Positions 48,373 to 54,833 of a stretch of DNA of 64,000 nt are shown piece after piece; the first letter of the stretch is position 1; every line of letters starts with the position of its first letter. The notes beneath the pieces were generated by a model. It saw only the letters and a list, made by a program, of their open reading frames with translations, made no database searches and had not been told where the DNA came from. Origin of the DNA: Streptosporangium album (GTDB taxonomy: Bacteria; Actinomycetota; Actinomycetes; Streptosporangiales; Streptosporangiaceae). A program made the translations under genes and the position numbers. Where the stretch lies: NCBI RefSeq assembly GCF_014203795.1, contig NZ_JACHJU010000001.1, positions 372,001-436,000 of the forward strand, given 5' to 3'.

Positions 48373-49581
48373 TCAGGCAGTGATCGCCTTTAGCATCTCA
48401 CTCACCTGCCGCCCATGGGAGGTTCGAGCCCACGGCCTCATCGCCGGACGGATCCCGAGCAGCGCGGTCTTCATCCGCGCCGAACCGGTCTCCCGGATCA
48501 ACCGCACTACGTTGCCCGCAGTGGCCACGGCGCGCTCGGCTTCTCCGCTCGCGGCAAGCGCCGTCGCGAACCGGGCCTGAAACACACCGACGTCGCGCTG
48601 CGACTGCGACGGCTGCCGCTCCAGAGCGCTTTCCCACAGCGCGGCCGCCTCACCGTGCAGACCCAGCCGCCCGTAGCAGGTGGCGCGCTGAATACTGAGG
48701 TACTGCGGGGTCCGGCGGGCAGCATTGCCCCACGCGAAATCGTCGTCGATCGCGTCGGTCAGGTTCGCCGCTTCGTCCAAAGACCGCTCGCATTCGCGCC
48801 GGTTTCCCATGAGGGAGCGGCCATGCGCCTCCTGCTGCAGCGCCAAGATCTGGACCTTCGGGCACAGCTGACGGTGATCAGCGAGCACGGCCGAGGCGAG
48901 ATCCACCACACCAGCGCCGTCCCCGGTGTCGGTCCGCAGCATCGCCTTGTTGACCAAGGCGTACCCGATGAGCTGCGGGTCGTGGGCGCGATGAGCCATG
49001 TCCAGCGTCTCCGCCCGCCAACCAGCGGACTGTCGAAGGTCGCCGGCGTCCTGGTAGAGCCAGCCGACCAACGCGGCATACGCGGTGCCGACGCGCAGCA
49101 ACTCCCGGCGAAGCGCGTCCGAAGCTTGCCCGGCCAGCTCGCCGATGAGCCGATGCTGAGCGATCACCGTAGGGATCAAATGGTGCGGGCCAAGGTACAT
49201 GTCGGCCATGTAATGACCATGAAGCTGGGTTGAGAAATAGCCGACCAATTCCGGCGCAACATGATGATTCGGCAAGGCAGGACTTTCATGAGGTGTGATC
49301 TCCCAAGGCGCGGAGAGGTCCCCGGGCCTTGTGTCGGAGCCAAGAAGCTCATCTTCGCTCAGGTCGAACACCCGACACAGCAAGGTGACGTAGAGCGAGC
49401 TCGGACGCCATGCCCCGCTCTCCCACTGACGGATCGAGCGACAGATGCTCTCAGTTGTCGCCAGCTGCACATCATGCCCCGCCGCCTCCCTCAGTCGCGC
49501 AGCCAGGCCCTTCTGAGACAGCAGGTGATCCCTGCGTCCCTGCCGTATCAGCGCCGCCCATGGGGTCGGTTCATCGAGCAT
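48373..49581 (-). CDS. XRE-family regulator with TPR-like domain
   Basis: 402 aa. The N-terminal helix-turn-helix is unusual in length (WAALIRQGRRDHLLSQKGLAARL, then ESICRSIRQWESGAWRPSS). A long helical domain follows with TPR-like pairs (HRAHDPQLIGYALVNKAML, AVLADHRQLCPKVQILALQQEAHGRS and similar). GAGGTG six bases upstream fixes ATG 49581. Such proteins often respond to small signals and control adjacent genes. It faces the small-gene/RiPP region across an operator-like dyad at 49714 and is the best candidate for its control. Confidence 0.85.
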   Translation of the reverse strand: MLDEPTPWAALIRQGRRDHLLSQKGLAARLREAAGHDVQLATTESICRSIRQWESGAWRPSSLYVTLLCRVFDLSEDELLGSDTRPGDLSAPWEITPHESPALPNHHVAPELVGYFSTQLHGHYMADMYLGPHHLIPTVIAQHRLIGELAGQASDALRRELLRVGTAYAALVGWLYQDAGDLRQSAGWRAETLDMAHRAHDPQLIGYALVNKAMLRTDTGDGAGVVDLASAVLADHRQLCPKVQILALQQEAHGRSLMGNRRECERSLDEAANLTDAIDDDFAWGNAARRTPQYLSIQRATCYGRLGLHGEAAALWESALERQPSQSQRDVGVFQARFATALAASGEAERAVATAGNVVRLIRETGSARMKTALLGIRPAMRPWARTSHGRQVSEMLKAITA

Positions 49582-49699
49582 CTGTGCACCTCGTCGACAG
49601 TCGGATGAGAGGGGGAGGAAGGAGGAAGGCCGCCCCACCTTCCTCAAGCATCCTCTTGCTTCCTCTCCCGGTAAGCGGTTCCGAAAGGTTCTTATTGTT

Positions 49700-49775: not shown

Positions 49776-50216
49776 GTGAACCACGCTAGTACAACTCCCT
49801 TATATGGGTCGATGGATTCTCCCCTTCTGAATTCCAGACAAATAGAACATAACGACGCCGAGGAGTGCAGCGACGCAAAAGCGGAAAAGCACGACAAGGC
49901 GTTGGCTGCCGTGCAGCGACTGCTGAAGGTCCGGGGAGCTCACTCTTACGTCGTTCACACGCACCACCTGAGCCTGTTCGGCGATGGCCGACCGTTCCCG
50001 CTGGGAAAGCGCCAGCGGTACACCCCCGAACTGGTCGTTCACAGCGACGTAGGATGGGTGATCGCCACGGTGGCCATAGGGCAGCGCTCCGGCTGCTACC
50101 TGGTGTCCATATCGCAAGGCCCCAACCTCGAGACAGTGCCCTCTGCGCATCCTGAAATGGTCGCGAACCTGGTCCTCACAGCACAGCCAGCAGCACAGCC
50201 AGGCGGTACGGCATGA
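49776..50216 (+). CDS. Hypothetical protein, 146 aa
   Basis: GTG 49776. A polar N-terminal 40 residues precede a compact domain: VRGAHSYVVHTHHLSLFGDG, RQRYTPELVVHSDVGWVIATVAIG and CYLVSISQGPNLETVPS. The alternation of strands suggests a small alpha/beta protein; no motif is known to me. It overlaps the next gene by four bases (ATGA). The pair follows the operator dyad and may be regulated by the XRE protein. Relation to the RiPP operon downstream is unproven. Confidence 0.65.
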   Translation: MNHASTTPLYGSMDSPLLNSRQIEHNDAEECSDAKAEKHDKALAAVQRLLKVRGAHSYVVHTHHLSLFGDGRPFPLGKRQRYTPELVVHSDVGWVIATVAIGQRSGCYLVSISQGPNLETVPSAHPEMVANLVLTAQPAAQPGGTA

Positions 50217-50881
50217 CGAGCACCGCCACGAGCACCGACATGACGGGCACCGTGGAGCCACGGCTCCGCGTCCCCTTCGTCATCGCTCACGCGGGCGAAA
50301 GCGCGCCGCAATCTCTGTCGTTCGTCAATAAGCCGTTCAGCGGCCTGCGGCTTGTCTACGACAACCCGCGCCGTGGCGATGAGGTTGGCAGAGTACTTCG
50401 CGCCCGAGTCCTGAACAACCGGCGTGGTGAGCCGCAATGGAAGCTGCTCAACACGGCTCGCCAGTGGCGATGCATGGAAAAGCTCCTGTGCCAGGTCTGC
50501 GGCCGAGTCGCGACAGACCCGAAAACGGGCCGCATCCCGTGGATCACCACCGCCACCGCGTTCCGCGAGATCCCCGGAGACGCGGACAGCGGCCTGACCA
50601 GCGCGCCCCCGACCTGCGCCGCGTGCATCCCGGAATCGCTCAGCATGTGCCCTCGGCTTCACGTGTCATCCGCCGTCTGGACCGTGGCCCGCCGCGAGCC
50701 CGCAGCGATCCTGGCGGACATGTACAGCCCCGACCTGAACGGGAGACCCGTTCACACAGGTGAACGCAACTTCTTCGTTGGCCTGGACGAGCCGGACCTG
50801 CTTCGTTATGCGCTCGCCACACAGTTGGTCGTCCGTATCGAGGACATGCAGCCCGCGCCGCACCTGGCGGGCACCCCCTAA
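50213..50881 (+). CDS. Hypothetical protein with zinc-ribbon Cys, 222 aa
   Basis: ATG 50213 overlaps the previous stop. After 70 residues without a known motif, a Cys cluster appears: CMEKLLCQVCGRVATD, then PPTCAACIPESLSMCP. CxxC plus CxxC suggests a structural zinc site. The C-terminal part (RNFFVGLDEPDLLRYALATQL) is helical. I recall similar pairs of small proteins next to XRE regulators in actinomycetes but no function. Followed by a hairpin at 50930. Confidence 0.65.
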   Translation: MTSTATSTDMTGTVEPRLRVPFVIAHAGESAPQSLSFVNKPFSGLRLVYDNPRRGDEVGRVLRARVLNNRRGEPQWKLLNTARQWRCMEKLLCQVCGRVATDPKTGRIPWITTATAFREIPGDADSGLTSAPPTCAACIPESLSMCPRLHVSSAVWTVARREPAAILADMYSPDLNGRPVHTGERNFFVGLDEPDLLRYALATQLVVRIEDMQPAPHLAGTP

Positions 50882-50991: not shown

Positions 50992-51070
50992 CCGTGGCCA
51001 CGAGACGAAATCGCCCTTCACCCCTCGCCAGAGGTGCGCGCGAAGAGCGACAACCCTCTCGTGGCCACGG
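50992..51070. promoter_or_regulatory. Spaced 14-bp inverted repeat upstream of the maturase gene
   Basis: CCGTGGCCACGAGA (50992-51005) and TCTCGTGGCCACGG (51057-51070) are exact inverted copies 51 bases apart. Each contains the palindrome GTGGCCAC. The right arm ends 43 bases before the radical SAM start. Two dimeric operator half-sites or an RNA structure in the leader are both possible. Confidence 0.5.
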
Positions 51071-51113: not shown

Positions 51114-52250
51114 ATGGAAGGACGATTAGAGTTTGATCGGTGGTTCGGCCGACCTGGGACACTGGTACTTCAGCCGACCACGCTATGCAATCTCGATTGC
51201 GTGTACTGCTATCTGCCGTTCCGGCGACTCAGCAATGAGATGTCCCCCGAGATCGCCCAGGCCGTTGCCGACTCGGCTGCGGATCTGACCGACCCCGGCG
51301 GCCAACTGGATATCGTGTGGCACGGCGGGGAGCCCCTGGCCCTGGGCCAGCGCAAGTTCACCGCCCTGCTCGCGCCGTTCGAGCAGCTCCGTCACGCGGG
51401 CCGAATCCAGCACAGCGTGCAGACCAACGCCACGCTCATCGACGACGAGTGGTGCGACCTGCTCGCCCGTTACCAAGTCCGCGTCGGCGTCAGCATCGAC
51501 GGCCCAGCGGCTCTGAACACCCGACGGGTCGACCTTCGCGGCCGGCCTGCCTTCGACCGGATCGTGCGCGGCATCCGCCGCCTGCGTGACCACGGCATCC
51601 GCTTCTCCGTGATCGCCGTCGTGGGGACCGAAGGCATTGAGCAGCCCGAGTCCCTCCTGGACTTCCTCGCAGACCTGGGGCCGCACACCATCGGCCTGAA
51701 CGTGGAGGAGATGGAAGGCGTCAACGACCAGCGGTGCGGGATCGCCCAAGACCAAGCCGAGCGATTCTGGCAGCGGGTCCTGAACTGGCGCAGGACCCAC
51801 GACGGAGGACCTGCGTTGCGGGAGCTCGACCGACTCGCCGACTACCTGTACCTCGCACGCAGCGGGCAGCGCGACGAGTGGTGCAGATACGGCCTCGATC
51901 CGATTCCGACAGTGTCGGTGGATGGAGACGTGGTGCTGATGTCGCCCGAGCTGGCTGGCATCAGCGACGACGCCTACGGCGACTTCCTCGCCGGGAACGT
52001 CCGCTCCCAGAGCATCTCCAGCATGCTGGCCCAGGCGCACCGGCTGCGCTACGTCCGCGAGTTCATGACCGGCCTGTCCCGCTGCCAGGCCGAATGCGAG
52101 TTCTTCGACTTCTGCCGGGGCGCGCAGGCATGCAACCGCTACTTCGAGAACGGCAGCTTCGCCACGACGGAGACCGACTACTGCCGACTCACCCGTCAAG
52201 CCCTCATCACCGCTCTGCACACCTCAACCAAAAAGGAGATCGCAGCATGA
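51114..52250 (+). CDS. amcB: Radical SAM/SPASM peptide maturase (cyclophane-forming type)
   Basis: 378 aa. The radical SAM cluster motif is CNLDCVYC (Cys25, Cys29, Cys32), followed by HGGEPLALG (the GGE SAM-binding motif). The C-terminal SPASM region has a first Cys in DEWCRYG and a cluster CQAECEFFDFCRGAQAC, then YCRL, enough for auxiliary [4Fe-4S] clusters. The start of the next gene, a small repeat-containing peptide rich in aromatic-X-Asn, overlaps this stop by four bases (ATGA). Such pairs form Cbeta-to-aromatic three-residue cyclophanes (triceptides). I use AmcB as the nearest family name from memory. ATG 51114 with AAGGA ten or more bases upstream. Confidence 0.87.
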   Translation: MEGRLEFDRWFGRPGTLVLQPTTLCNLDCVYCYLPFRRLSNEMSPEIAQAVADSAADLTDPGGQLDIVWHGGEPLALGQRKFTALLAPFEQLRHAGRIQHSVQTNATLIDDEWCDLLARYQVRVGVSIDGPAALNTRRVDLRGRPAFDRIVRGIRRLRDHGIRFSVIAVVGTEGIEQPESLLDFLADLGPHTIGLNVEEMEGVNDQRCGIAQDQAERFWQRVLNWRRTHDGGPALRELDRLADYLYLARSGQRDEWCRYGLDPIPTVSVDGDVVLMSPELAGISDDAYGDFLAGNVRSQSISSMLAQAHRLRYVREFMTGLSRCQAECEFFDFCRGAQACNRYFENGSFATTETDYCRLTRQALITALHTSTKKEIAA

Positions 52251-52432
52251 CCATGCTGGAGTGCCTGGCCACCACGGATGCGAAGGTGGTCGACGACCTG
52301 ATCAGTACCAGCACCTTTGAGAACCCCGATCCGATTCGAGCCGCCAAGTTCGACAACAAGCCGAGCTGGGACAACGGCAAGGGCGGATTCAACAACAAGC
52401 CGAGCTGGGACAACTGGAGCAAGAAGAAATAG
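52247..52432 (+). CDS. amcA: RiPP precursor peptide with F/W-x-N repeats
   Basis: 61 aa. GGAGA lies before ATG 52247. The leader (1-33) is MTMLECLATTDAKVVDDLIS then TSTFENPDPIRAA. The core has two 13-residue repeats: FDNKPSWDNGKGG (35-47) and FNNKPSWDNWSKK (48-60), closing with Lys61. Four aromatic-X-Asn motifs (FDN, WDN, FNN, WDN) are the expected sites for three-residue cyclophanes; FEN in the leader is a fifth, probably untouched. The DNA repeat is nearly exact. The start is coupled to the maturase stop and a hairpin follows. No double-Gly protease site is obvious. Confidence 0.85.
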   Translation: MTMLECLATTDAKVVDDLISTSTFENPDPIRAAKFDNKPSWDNGKGGFNNKPSWDNWSKKK

Positions 52433-52439
52433 CAGATGA

Positions 52440-52474
52440 CCGTCGTGGGCGCGGGATCACCGCGCCCACGACGG
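52440..52474. terminator. 15-bp perfect hairpin after the precursor gene
   Basis: CCGTCGTGGGCGCGG and its exact complement enclose the five-base loop GATCA, with no T-tract. It starts eight bases after the precursor stop. A partial terminator or mRNA-stabilising stem here would let the precursor be made in excess over the genes that follow. Confidence 0.75.
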
Positions 52475-52496
52475 GACCAATATGGAAGGCAAGACA

Positions 52497-53156
52497 ATGG
52501 AAACCGCCGTACGCCAGACGAGCGTTACGCTGCCCGACCTGGACGACGCCGACCTGGACGAGGTCGATTCGCTGGAAGGCGAGCACGGCAAGCTGCGCGA
52601 CTTCCGATACGCCGACGCCAGTCTGCGCGAGCTGCCCCTGTCGGGAACCCAGCTCATGGACGGGCGCATCACCGGCCTCACCACCCAGCGTGCCCGCCTG
52701 GAGGAACTGCGCCTGCACTCGGTGGAGTTCTCCGACTGCGACCTGTCCGGCCTCCGCTGGGAGGACAGCAAGCTCTCCAGGGTCGTGTTCGTCGACTGCA
52801 AGATGCTCGGCGCTGCGTGGGAGAACGTCACGCTCGATGACGTGGTCTTCGAGCGGTGCAAGTTCGACCTTGCCGCCTTCACCCACATGCGCGCCATCGG
52901 GGCAGTCATCTTCTCGTCCTGTTCCCTGCGTGAGGCGAGGTTCTCCGCAGCCGACCTGAGCGATGTGGCGTTCGACGAGTGCGACCTACACCTGACGGAG
53001 TTCGATGGCGGCACCTATCGTGGTTGCGACTTGCGCGGCAACGACCTGTCCGGCCTTCGCGGCGTGACCGCGCTCAAGAAGATCATCGTTGATCGGCCGC
53101 AGCTCCAGGGCCTCGCCGAGGCGTTCGCGGCCGAGCTGGAGATCACCGTCAGTTAG
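52497..53156 (+). CDS. Pentapeptide-repeat protein, possible immunity
   Basis: 219 aa from ATG 52497, chosen because GGAAGG lies seven bases upstream; another ATG lies five codons earlier. From about residue 35 to 190 the chain follows the five-residue A(D/N)LXX-like pattern (FRYADASLRELPLSGTQL, VEFSDCDLSGLRW, ARFSAADLSDVAFDECDL, YRGCDLRGNDLSGLRGV). These fold as a right-handed square beta-helix that can mimic DNA (Qnr, McbG). In a RiPP operon such a protein is a natural self-resistance candidate. The tail (VDRPQLQGLAEAFAAELEI) is helical. Confidence 0.83.
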   Translation: METAVRQTSVTLPDLDDADLDEVDSLEGEHGKLRDFRYADASLRELPLSGTQLMDGRITGLTTQRARLEELRLHSVEFSDCDLSGLRWEDSKLSRVVFVDCKMLGAAWENVTLDDVVFERCKFDLAAFTHMRAIGAVIFSSCSLREARFSAADLSDVAFDECDLHLTEFDGGTYRGCDLRGNDLSGLRGVTALKKIIVDRPQLQGLAEAFAAELEITVS

Positions 53157-53189
53157 GACTACGACAACTGCTGCACGGGAGGCGGAGAC

Positions 53190-53900
53190 ATGGGCGTACG
53201 ACTGCTGTTCGACCAGTTCAGCGACATCCAGGGACGTATCGACATCGGGGACGTCAGGCAGGCGGGCGACACGCCGGGCTACGACGACGGCGTGGCCGTC
53301 GTCCCACGTAGGGGCTGGGCAGCCCTCAGAGAGGAAGAGGCCGAACGATTCCGGCCCGACGCTGACACGCCGCTCAGCATGACGATCGAACTGGTCAGCC
53401 AGGATTTGCCGGTCTTCGCCTCCGACGACCTCCAAGCCCGTGTGGATGCCGCAGCCGCTCTCGACCCGCTGGAAGGCCGCTGGCCGCACAGGCGCCTCGC
53501 CTGCACAGCCAGCCCGCCCGGCCAGCTCACCAGCACCGAGGACTCCACGACTGGCCACCGGATCGGACTGCACGTCGACAACTTCGACCGGCTGACCTAC
53601 TCTGCCCGGCAGAACAGCCGCCGACGCCTCTGCCTCAACCTGGGACCCGGCACCCGCTATCTCCTGGTCGGCGACCGGGACATCAAAGAGATATGCCGCG
53701 CCCTGGGCTGTGACCAGGACAGGTACTACCCGCACACCGACGACCTGCGCCGTTACGTCGCAGATGGGCACACACTGCGGTGCCTCCGCATCCGGCTTGA
53801 CCCCGGCGAGGGATACATCGCCCCCACGGAGTTCCTGCCGCACGACGGTTCTACGGCCGGCATGCGGGAATGGTCACTCGCCGCCTTCTGGCTGGGCTGA
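53190..53900 (+). CDS. Candidate iron-dependent oxygenase in the RiPP operon
   Basis: 236 aa. Not firmly recognised. The centre reads HRIGLHVDNFDRLTY, with HVD fitting the HxD half of the facial triad of Fe(II) oxygenases, then RRRLCLNLGPGTRYLLVGD, a strand pair as in the double-stranded beta-helix. A later His in TEFLPHDGST could be the third ligand. The 33-base gap to the pentapeptide gene and the terminator right after it make it the last gene of the operon. If correct, it may hydroxylate or oxidise the modified peptide; cupin-like non-enzymatic roles are possible. ATG 53190. Confidence 0.6.
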   Translation: MGVRLLFDQFSDIQGRIDIGDVRQAGDTPGYDDGVAVVPRRGWAALREEEAERFRPDADTPLSMTIELVSQDLPVFASDDLQARVDAAAALDPLEGRWPHRRLACTASPPGQLTSTEDSTTGHRIGLHVDNFDRLTYSARQNSRRRLCLNLGPGTRYLLVGDRDIKEICRALGCDQDRYYPHTDDLRRYVADGHTLRCLRIRLDPGEGYIAPTEFLPHDGSTAGMREWSLAAFWLG

Positions 53901-53912
53901 GCCGCCCAACGC

Positions 53913-53957
53913 AAAGAAGCCCCGCCCGTCTCCGAAGAGACGAGCGGGGGCTTCTTT
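53913..53957. terminator. Strong terminator closing the RiPP operon
   Basis: AAAGAAGCCCCGC-CGTCTC and GAGACG-GCGGGGGCTTCTTT-type arms form an almost perfect 20-bp stem with loop CGAA and T/A tracts at the ends. It lies 12 bases after the last gene and can end transcripts from either side. Confidence 0.93.
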
Positions 53958-54141: not shown

Positions 54142-54546
54142 CTACACGTCGTAGACCTGGAGGACCTCGTCACCGTAGTGGTTAATCACCTTAACCGCGA
54201 TCTTGCCAGTGGCCGGAGACCGGAACGGCTGCGAACGCGTGGTGTAGAGCGCAGCCCAAGCGTCCTCGTCGATGTCGGCCTTGAGTGCCTGCTTGAGCCG
54301 CTTGTACGGATCGTTGCCACCGGTGAAGTAGCAATGCCGGACGAAGAACGACTCGCCGTCGTAGTCCGTGTCGATCATCCAGAGGGCGATCTCGTTCGTG
54401 CCGTTCGAGCGGATCGCGCCCTGGGTCGGGTCGTAGACGTCAATGCCCCGGATCTCCACCACAACGCCTTCAGCCGTCTGCTGGATGTCGATGTCCGGCT
54501 CGCCGAAGACCATGAACAGGTTGCCGCTGCCGGTCTTCGGCGCCAT
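54142..54546 (-). pseudogene. C-terminal fragment of a type III Mod methyltransferase
   Basis: Reads GSGNLFMVFGEPDIDI, then GAIRSNGTNEIALWMIDTDY, ESFFVRHCYFTGGNDPYKRL, ALKADIDEDAWAALY, and ends GKIAVKVINHYGDEVLQVYDV. This sequence of motifs is the tail of site-specific adenine methyltransferases of type III restriction systems. The catalytic DPPY/FxGxG part is absent and no Res gene is present. The left-over starts at about 54546, where unrelated sequence begins. Confidence 0.7.
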
Positions 54547-54833
54547 CACGGAATCCGACAACGACACCGATGAATGGCGGACTGGCATACCGGAGAGCCA
54601 CCACCTCCAGATCGGCGACATTCTGCTCTCCGCAGTAGTCGCTGGCCGTGCCAAGGCGGCTCGCGTCGAGGAATCCCACCTGCCAGCCGCAGCTGCAGGC
54701 TGTGTCTCCCCACTCCGCCGGCCAGACGCGGTAAGCGAGGCTGCTCTGCAAGATCATGAGGCATGGGCATGGCCGGCTACTGCTCGAAGACGCGGTCCAT
54801 GACGGCCTGGCCTCATCCCTATGGCGGAGACGG
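54547..54833. other. Junction sequence, possible gene fragment on minus strand
   Basis: From ATG 54757 on the minus strand one frame reads MILQSSLAYRVWPAEWGDTA, CSCGWQVGFLDASRLGTAS and LEVVALRYASPPFIGVVV before running into the Mod fragment in another frame. The composition looks protein-like but I do not recognise it. No ribosome site. Probably the 5-prime end of a third broken gene. Confidence 0.3.

What the first reader, a model, noticed from the sequence alone, without database searches (positions are those of the whole stretch)
51114..53957. Compact cyclophane (triceptide-type) RiPP operon
A radical SAM/SPASM enzyme, a 61-aa peptide with four aromatic-X-Asn motifs, a pentapeptide-repeat protein and an HxD-motif protein form one operon closed by a strong terminator. 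The maturase stop overlaps the precursor start by four bases. Three-residue cyclophanes on Trp/Phe-X-Asn are known for related maturases, but the full four-gene set with these core repeats may be new.
Basis: partly seen in the sequence, partly recalled or inferred. Interest (0 to 1): 0.88.

Follow-up and report, generated by a model that had tools for sequence, protein, structure and literature searches.

The report
Cyclophane peptide operon with guard protein
A soil actinomycete carries a small operon of a known kind that should turn a 61-residue peptide into a chain of tight carbon-linked rings, and beside it sits a DNA-mimic-like protein that often stays when relatives lose the pathway, which suggests that it guards the cell and that the peptide may attack DNA gyrase.

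Summary
In detail: four co-directional genes, a 4-base ATGA overlap, four aromatic-X-Asn motifs and a strong terminator. The core is a known family: maturase = NCBIfam AmcB (516 bits, cut-off 425), peptide = AmcA (71, cut-off 40), so "may be new" fails for that pair. Added here: (1) The pentapeptide-repeat protein (PRP) follows amcBA in 25 of 28 AmcB loci and is closest to EfsQnr, MfpA and AlbG. Of 41 genomes with this PRP type, 16 lack an over-cut-off AmcB; the PRP frame is whole in 15 of 16, these genomes are scattered on the tree, and selection persists. AmcB without PRP: 3 of 28. Against: eight further amc ruins hold no whole PRP. Still, immunity, hence a gyrase-type target as for microcin B17, is the best reading. 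(2) The HxD protein is a relative of the alpha-ketoglutarate oxygenase MicC (E 3.6e-18); all 13 genomes with a (near-)complete copy among 345 have it beside an AmcB or AmcB-like maturase. No bench data: rings, oxidation, immunity and target are inferred.

The parts
50993..51069 (.). pair of identical palindromes CGTGGCCACG (50993-51002 and 51060-51069) before amcB; candidate operator
   Evidence: only two copies in the 64-kb window; a pair also before amcB in L043 and L051, one exact copy in L068, none in L050, L069 or L070. Function not tested.
51114..52250 (+). amcB, radical SAM/SPASM cyclophane-forming maturase, 378 aa
   Evidence: NF041718 AmcB 516 bits, cut-off 425; C25/C29/C32 and C324/C328/C334/C357 invariant in the 19 aligned sequences
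52247..52432 (+). amcA, precursor peptide, 61 aa, four aromatic-X-Asn motifs at residues 35-37, 41-43, 48-50, 54-56
   Evidence: NF041721 AmcA 71.4 bits, cut-off 40
52440..52474 (+). 15-bp perfect hairpin with 5-base loop, no T run; candidate mRNA stabiliser or partial terminator that sets precursor above downstream genes (role inferred)
   Evidence: 52433-52496: -37.5 kcal/mol, z -7.3, 0 of 200 shuffles as low; in 17 long-spacer loci, window included, 9 clear, 4 near, 4 not clear against shuffles
52497..53156 (+). pentapeptide-repeat protein resembling MfpA/Qnr/AlbG, proposed immunity protein (219 aa; alternative start 52482 gives 224 aa)
53190..53900 (+). HxD protein, MicC-like alpha-ketoglutarate/Fe(II) oxygenase, 236 aa; H128-x-D130 and H218 the probable iron ligands
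   Evidence: 9VKM MicC E 3.6e-18 with the HxD and the distal His aligned; H128 and D130 invariant, H218 nearly so, in 66 rows; model pLDDT 93.6
53913..53957 (+). intrinsic terminator
   Evidence: -31 kcal/mol, z -5.6, 0 of 200 shuffles as low, T-rich 3' arm

Best explanation
This is a triceptide RiPP operon of the AmcB/AmcA family. Step 1 (inferred from family, about 0.9): AmcB uses SAM radical chemistry to join the aromatic ring of Phe or Trp to the beta carbon of the Asn two residues on, giving up to four three-residue cyclophanes in the C-terminal half of AmcA (loss of up to 8 H). Step 2 (inferred, about 0.6): the HxD protein, an alpha-ketoglutarate/Fe(II) oxygenase, oxidises the ringed peptide, most likely by hydroxylation, as the ChlH domain (another fold) does on a cyclophane peptide. 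Step 3 (inferred, about 0.55): the PRP is the self-immunity protein and protects the target rather than changing the peptide. Step 4 (inferred, about 0.35): the target is DNA gyrase or topoisomerase IV, as for the PRP-guarded microcin B17, albicidin and speirobactin. The hairpin after amcA would keep precursor mRNA high relative to the two helper genes. No conserved protease or exporter was seen near the genes, so leader removal and release are open. Odds for steps 3 and 4 were lowered a little.
For: AmcB and AmcA over curated cut-offs. AmcB over cut-off in 28 of 345 genomes of the order; the PRP next to it on the same strand in 25 of 28. In the scan of named genomes 8 of 80 loci had an AmcA match; 7 of these have the PRP beside it (one of the 7, L078, is the same contig as L052; in L119 it is on the other strand), the eighth, L111, is a weak match. 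PRP: sequence and fold nearest to EfsQnr, MfpA, AlbG and PENT with a C-terminal helix, net charge -17. Retention: 41 genomes hold the PRP at 192 bits or more, 16 of them without an over-cut-off AmcB; PRP frame whole in 15 of 16; 9 of 16 keep amc remnants beside it; orphans scattered on the tree, at least 9 label changes forced by well-supported branches; orphan-orphan dN/dS 0.32 and 0.18. The opposite, AmcB over cut-off with no PRP: 3 of 28. HxD: MicC relative; in 13 of 13 genomes with a (near-)complete copy, of 345 searched, it lies beside an AmcB or AmcB-like maturase, one of which (L065, the one scanned) is GrrM/OscB over cut-off. Papers, passages read: OscB joins Trp C7 or Phe C4 to Asn C-beta (PMC11002830); ChlH hydroxylates a cyclophane peptide (PMC12636437); McbG and AlbG protect best against their cognate gyrase poisons (PMC7897471); a PRP in the speirobactin cluster led the authors to gyrase as target (PMC12406682).
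Confidence: 0.55

Rival explanations
1. The PRP is an immunity protein for another target: like HetL, which shields HetR from the PatS peptide by binding at the same interface, it occupies the peptide's binding site on some other protein; the cyclophane is a signal or a toxin with a non-gyrase target.
Against: By sequence the gyrase-linked PRPs score far above HetL (3.4e-24, 5.4e-23, 1.7e-21 against 7e-14), and a C-terminal helix like that used for dimers by MfpA and EfsQnr (PMC8145042 passages) is predicted.
Confidence: 0.25
2. The PRP serves biosynthesis (scaffold or chaperone for AmcA or the mature peptide), or has a house function of its own and merely sits beside the pathway; orphan copies then say nothing about immunity.
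For: Tight gene order amcB-amcA-PRP in 25 of 28 loci; eight ruins without a whole PRP.
Against: Orphan PRPs mostly keep whole frames with dN/dS near 0.3 while the maturase is lost, in several clades, which a pure biosynthesis helper would not.
Confidence: 0.18
3. The locus is decaying here too and makes nothing.
For: In the same genus several genomes show broken copies: amcB deleted or truncated (L068, L069, L070) and a frame-shifted amcA end in L043.
Against: In the window all four genes are whole, the family Cys residues, the HxD and distal His and all four core motifs are present, and hairpin and terminator are intact.
Confidence: 0.05

Closest known systems
AmcB/AmcA cyclophane RiPP (NCBIfam NF041718, NF041721)
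   Same: Maturase and precursor both over the curated cut-off; aromatic-X-Asn repeats; adjacent genes
   Different: Nothing found in the core pair. The two family models name only maturase and precursor; PRP and MicC-like oxygenase are added here.
GrrM/OscB triceptides (TIGR04261)
   Same: Second-best family for the maturase (271 bits); Phe/Trp-to-Asn C-beta ring chemistry reported for OscB (PMC11002830 passages)
   Different: Below that family's cut-off (310)
ChlB/ChlH (fused radical SAM and alpha-ketoglutarate HEXXH domain)
   Same: Cyclophane maturase paired with an alpha-ketoglutarate oxygenase (PMC12636437 passages); ChlB is the best solved sequence relative of the maturase (E 7.6e-18)
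   Different: Here the oxygenase is a separate gene with an HxD...H iron site
MicC (PDB 9VKM), alpha-ketoglutarate-dependent non-heme iron oxygenase
   Same: Only solved sequence relative of the HxD protein, iron ligands aligned
   Different: 295 aa against 236; its pathway and substrate were seen in no call
McbG/microcin B17, AlbG/albicidin, MfpA and Qnr proteins
   Same: PRP of the same fold; McbG and AlbG belong to peptide-poison producers; acidic; C-terminal helix
   Different: Peptide chemistry is cyclophane (microcin B17 and albicidin are not; recalled); 14-24% identity to these solved relatives in the structural alignments; no family cut-off reached

Membership tests
AmcB maturase (NF041718) | score over the curated equivalog cut-off of 425 bits | tested here: met
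   516.3 bits
AmcB maturase (NF041718) | radical SAM CxxxCxxC and SPASM-region cysteines | tested here: met
   C25, C29, C32, C324, C328, C334, C357 invariant in 19 aligned sequences
AmcA precursor (NF041721) | score over the curated cut-off of 40 bits, beside amcB | tested here: met
   71.4 bits; 4-base overlap with amcB
Triceptide class | C-C bond from aromatic residue 1 to C-beta of residue 3 in the product | not testable with these tools
   needs co-expression, MS and NMR
[quoted passage not shown]
Topoisomerase-protecting PRP (MfpA/Qnr/AlbG/McbG) | over the NCBIfam cut-off of a gyrase-protecting PRP model | tested here: not met
   Qnr 46.5 of 240, MfpA 29.5 of 360 bits; not filed as Qnr or MfpA, though it may work like one
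Topoisomerase-protecting PRP (MfpA/Qnr/AlbG/McbG) | binds gyrase and relieves poisoning | not testable with these tools
   needs purified proteins
Alpha-ketoglutarate/Fe(II) oxygenase, MicC type | sequence relation to MicC with the HxD...H iron triad kept | tested here: met
   E 3.6e-18; HxD and distal His of the profile align with GMHIDN and IIHDGST of MicC
Alpha-ketoglutarate/Fe(II) oxygenase, MicC type | double-stranded beta-helix fold of known oxygenases | tested here: inconclusive
GrrM/OscB (TIGR04261) | score over cut-off 310 | tested here: not met
   271.1 bits

The most novel reading that the evidence does not exclude
AMC triceptides are a new chemical class of gyrase (or topoisomerase IV) poisons made on the ribosome: multi-ring cyclophane peptides guarded by a dedicated pentapeptide-repeat protein that many relatives keep as orphan immunity after losing the pathway, with a MicC-type oxygenase tuning the ringed peptide in one branch. 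It would give actinobacterial triceptides of this family a target.
Probability: 0.3. Interest if true: 0.82.

Novelty: new variant of a known kind. Interest (0 to 1): 0.56.

Why it matters
I found no target or activity for AMC triceptides in the papers searched. A resistance gene inside a cluster is one of the few sequence-level clues to a target; a PRP was used in just this way to predict gyrase for speirobactin (PMC12406682 passages). Here the PRP is in 25 of 28 loci of one triceptide family and often stays when the maturase is lost, so a concrete and cheap prediction follows: the AMC peptide acts on gyrase. If true, it adds a scaffold unlike quinolones, albicidin or microcin B17. The HxD gene adds an untested peptide oxygenase that recurs beside two cyclophane maturase families.

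Tried and rejected
Rejected: thioether chemistry for the maturase (PapB 81 bits against AmcB 516). Rejected: viperin-like defence protein (weak pVip match, 48 bits over residues 22-222 of the radical SAM domain). Rejected: Qnr/MfpA membership for the PRP as such (cut-offs not met). Rejected: halogenase for the HxD protein, although WelO5 is among the VIA matches, because the second ligand is Asp (recalled: halogenases carry Gly or Ala there). Rejected: ORFs 49776-50216 and 50213-50881 as part of the operon; of the loci searched only L043 and L070/L231 (for the second) and L213 (for the first) hold a relative.

Led nowhere: a class-wide sample of 393 genomes for HxD gave the window, G078 and two matches of about 30 residues. 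In one search, which needed two of four terms, none of the 26 papers listed of 31 uses AmcA/AmcB in this sense; no paper listed (16 of 18) or 59 (8) holds MicC. 'Triceptide' alone brings 16 papers, of which I read passages of one. That the PRP link is not in print rests only on the listings in an open-licence library; the original AmcB report was not held and may mention it. The neighbour clustering printed its 25 largest groups, many of them shadow frames, and these were not annotated by family; I saw no group that I recognised as transporter or protease. Five PRP copies scored between 145 and 183 bits (G115 second copy, G101, G298, G090, G210 second copy) and were left out of the 41; three of them (L226, L227, L229; 42-46% identity, no amc genes found) are in the tree as orphans. 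Dropped from the tree: L224 and L230 (partial PRP) and L228 (frame broken). In L060 the PRP frame runs on from the amcB stub; it is counted as whole. Some PRP starts are too far upstream (L040, L042, L051, L054, L060), which does not change the counts. dN/dS was run on 21 chosen pairs, not on all.
Full report
What is there. The four genes lie on the + strand between 51114 and 53900 and close with a strong terminator. The maturase stop and the precursor start share ATGA. The precursor is 61 aa with four aromatic-X-Asn motifs in its C-terminal half. The PRP more likely starts at 52497 than at 52482, because the consensus of relatives begins at the second Met and the ribosome-binding-like GGAAGG lies between the two. 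Contig lengths of two genus-mates (1,965,782 and 7,786,930 bases) match records named Streptosporangium, so the host is very probably a Streptosporangium; the own genome has 9.0 Mb and one AmcB.

The core pair is known. The maturase scores 516 bits on NCBIfam AmcB (cut-off 425), 271 on GrrM/OscB (cut-off 310) and 81 on the thioether-forming PapB; the peptide scores 71 on AmcA (cut-off 40). For OscB the review PMC11002830 (passages read) gives bonds from Trp C7 to Asn or Asp C-beta and from Phe C4 to Asn C-beta. In relatives the core carries two to four motifs: for example FDNRPTWDN alone in L036, L047 and L049, and four in most loci of the window's group.

How common the set is. AmcB passes its cut-off in 28 of 345 genomes of the order. 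I took about 6 kb on each side of 27 of these, besides the window (L009 and a few others cut by contig ends). A PRP of this type follows amcA on the same strand in 25 of 28; it is missing in L048, L056 and L057, the last two with only 39-41% maturase identity, L048 with a peptide below the AmcA cut-off (26.6 bits). The HxD gene follows the PRP in 7 of 28, in L058 split over two frames. In the scan of named genomes (80 loci kept) an AmcA match was found in 8: L077, L078, L080, L081, L100, L105 and L119 (Streptomyces, Nocardiopsis, Kribbella, Saccharopolyspora), all with the PRP beside it (in L119 on the other strand; L078 is the same contig as L052), and L111, a weak match (E 0.006) between an HxD gene and the maturase, without PRP. 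Micromonosporaceae maturases (43-47% identity) sit beside another precursor, ending HFENIPTF(Y/F)NWNNRPR in 7 of 8 loci checked, and no such PRP was found there.

The retention test. The same 345 genomes were searched with the PRP profile. I drew the line at 192 bits by eye, after seeing the list; five copies lie between 145 and 183 bits and the rest run on from 140 downward. At 192 bits or more, 41 genomes have the PRP. AmcB over cut-off is present in 25 and not in 16. In 9 of the 16 remnants of amc genes still lie beside the PRP (L060, L068, L071, L218, L220-L223 and, by an HxD piece found with the profile, G008); in 7 none was seen (in G103 only the upstream side can be read). The PRP frame is whole in 15 of 16 (G331 is partial), partly because the score line favours whole copies. 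On a tree of 43 PRPs (25 linked, 18 orphan, three of the latter from a separate branch) the label changes 14 times, at least 9 times over well-supported branches, no more clustered than shuffled labels (312 of 500 as low). Pairwise dN/dS on 21 chosen pairs: orphan-orphan 0.32 and 0.18; orphans against the window 0.27-0.46; linked pairs in the genus 0.33-0.53; in the other clade linked 0.08-0.20, orphans against linked kin 0.14-0.30; and two wider pairs 0.26 and 0.57. AmcB over cut-off without a PRP is 3 of 28.

What speaks against it. Eight further ruins, with pieces of amcB, amcA or HxD but no whole PRP, are known from these searches: L069, L070, L174, L175 and L176-L179 (L174 and L175 with only 1.5 kb on each side). 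So among ruins with recognisable remnants about half keep a whole PRP. AmcB is longer and breaks more easily, and draft assemblies may add false breaks. The 16-to-3 asymmetry, the scatter on the tree and the low dN/dS still favour a gene with value of its own once the pathway is gone, as an immunity gene would have, but a house function is not excluded.

Why gyrase. McbG and AlbG protect best against their own poisons, microcin B17 and albicidin, both acting on gyrase (PMC7897471 passages); the PRP in the speirobactin cluster led its authors to gyrase, confirmed by mutants (PMC12406682 passages). The counter-example is HetL, a PRP that shields HetR from the PatS peptide (abstract of PMC7476756). 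I put immunity at 0.55 and gyrase or topoisomerase IV at about 0.35.

The HxD protein. No Pfam, NCBIfam, PHROG or PADLOC model claims it at a meaningful score (best Pfam E 0.03, NCBIfam 0.025). The profile of 66 relatives finds one solved protein, MicC (9VKM), E 3.6e-18, with the HxD and the distal His aligned. In 345 genomes 20 have any match and 13 a complete or nearly complete copy; in all 13 it lies beside an AmcB locus (9, two of them with a broken amcB) or an AmcB-like maturase (4; the one I scanned, L065, is GrrM/OscB at 364 bits, cut-off 310). The other matches are pieces, several in amc ruins. It is therefore a cyclophane-pathway oxygenase by association. The ChlH domain hydroxylates Asp and His of a peptide with preinstalled cyclophanes (PMC12636437 passages); the middle Asp of the WDN/FDN rings is the natural guess for the site here, untested.

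The hairpin. Just after the amcA stop a 15-bp perfect stem folds at z -7.3. Relatives with a spacer of about 50-90 bases have stems of mostly different sequence: of 17 such loci tested, window included, 9 fold below all 200 shuffles, 4 (L036, L047, L053, L054) have 1 to 7 shuffles as low, and 4 (L034, L039, L055, L071; 14 to 35 of 200) are not clear once their G+C is kept. Relatives with a spacer of about 8-15 bases have no room for it. A role in keeping precursor message above the helper genes is my inference.

Verdict. The operon is a real, intact member of a known triceptide family. The added value is the evidence, suggestive and not conclusive, that its PRP is an immunity gene, and the assignment of the HxD gene; together they make the target and the final chemistry directly testable.

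Noticed in passing
48373-49647 (-): NsdA-family TPR-like regulator (NF053720, 187 bits, cut-off 75) upstream of the operon; a frame that reads like an HTH regulator lies upstream of amcB in some relatives (not annotated by family). Whether it controls the operon is unknown.
   Followed up: partly
50213-50881 (+): Cys-containing 222-aa protein without Pfam match, PHROG phrog_30088 (E 3e-14); a relative lies upstream of amcB in L043 (38%) and beside the amcB fragment in L070.
   Followed up: partly
L068 (G304): An internal deletion joins the N-terminal half of amcB in frame to amcA from residue 14 on, while PRP and HxD are whole.
   Followed up: partly
L043 (G302): The amcA reading frame shifts after the second motif, so the last two motifs are out of frame, beside whole amcB, PRP and HxD.
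   Followed up: no
L082, L083, L085, L087, L088, L092, L099: Micromonosporaceae maturases close to AmcB share a precursor end HFENIPTF(Y/F)NWNNRPR (7 of 8 loci checked); no PRP found nearby.
   Followed up: partly
L111 1087-3429: A contig binned as Chitinophaga carries an HxD oxygenase, a weak AmcA-like match and an AmcB-like maturase in a row, far outside Actinobacteria.
   Followed up: no
54145-54651 (-): 169-aa frame without any Pfam or NCBIfam match at the thresholds used, directly after the terminator; it may be the end of a once longer gene.
   Followed up: no
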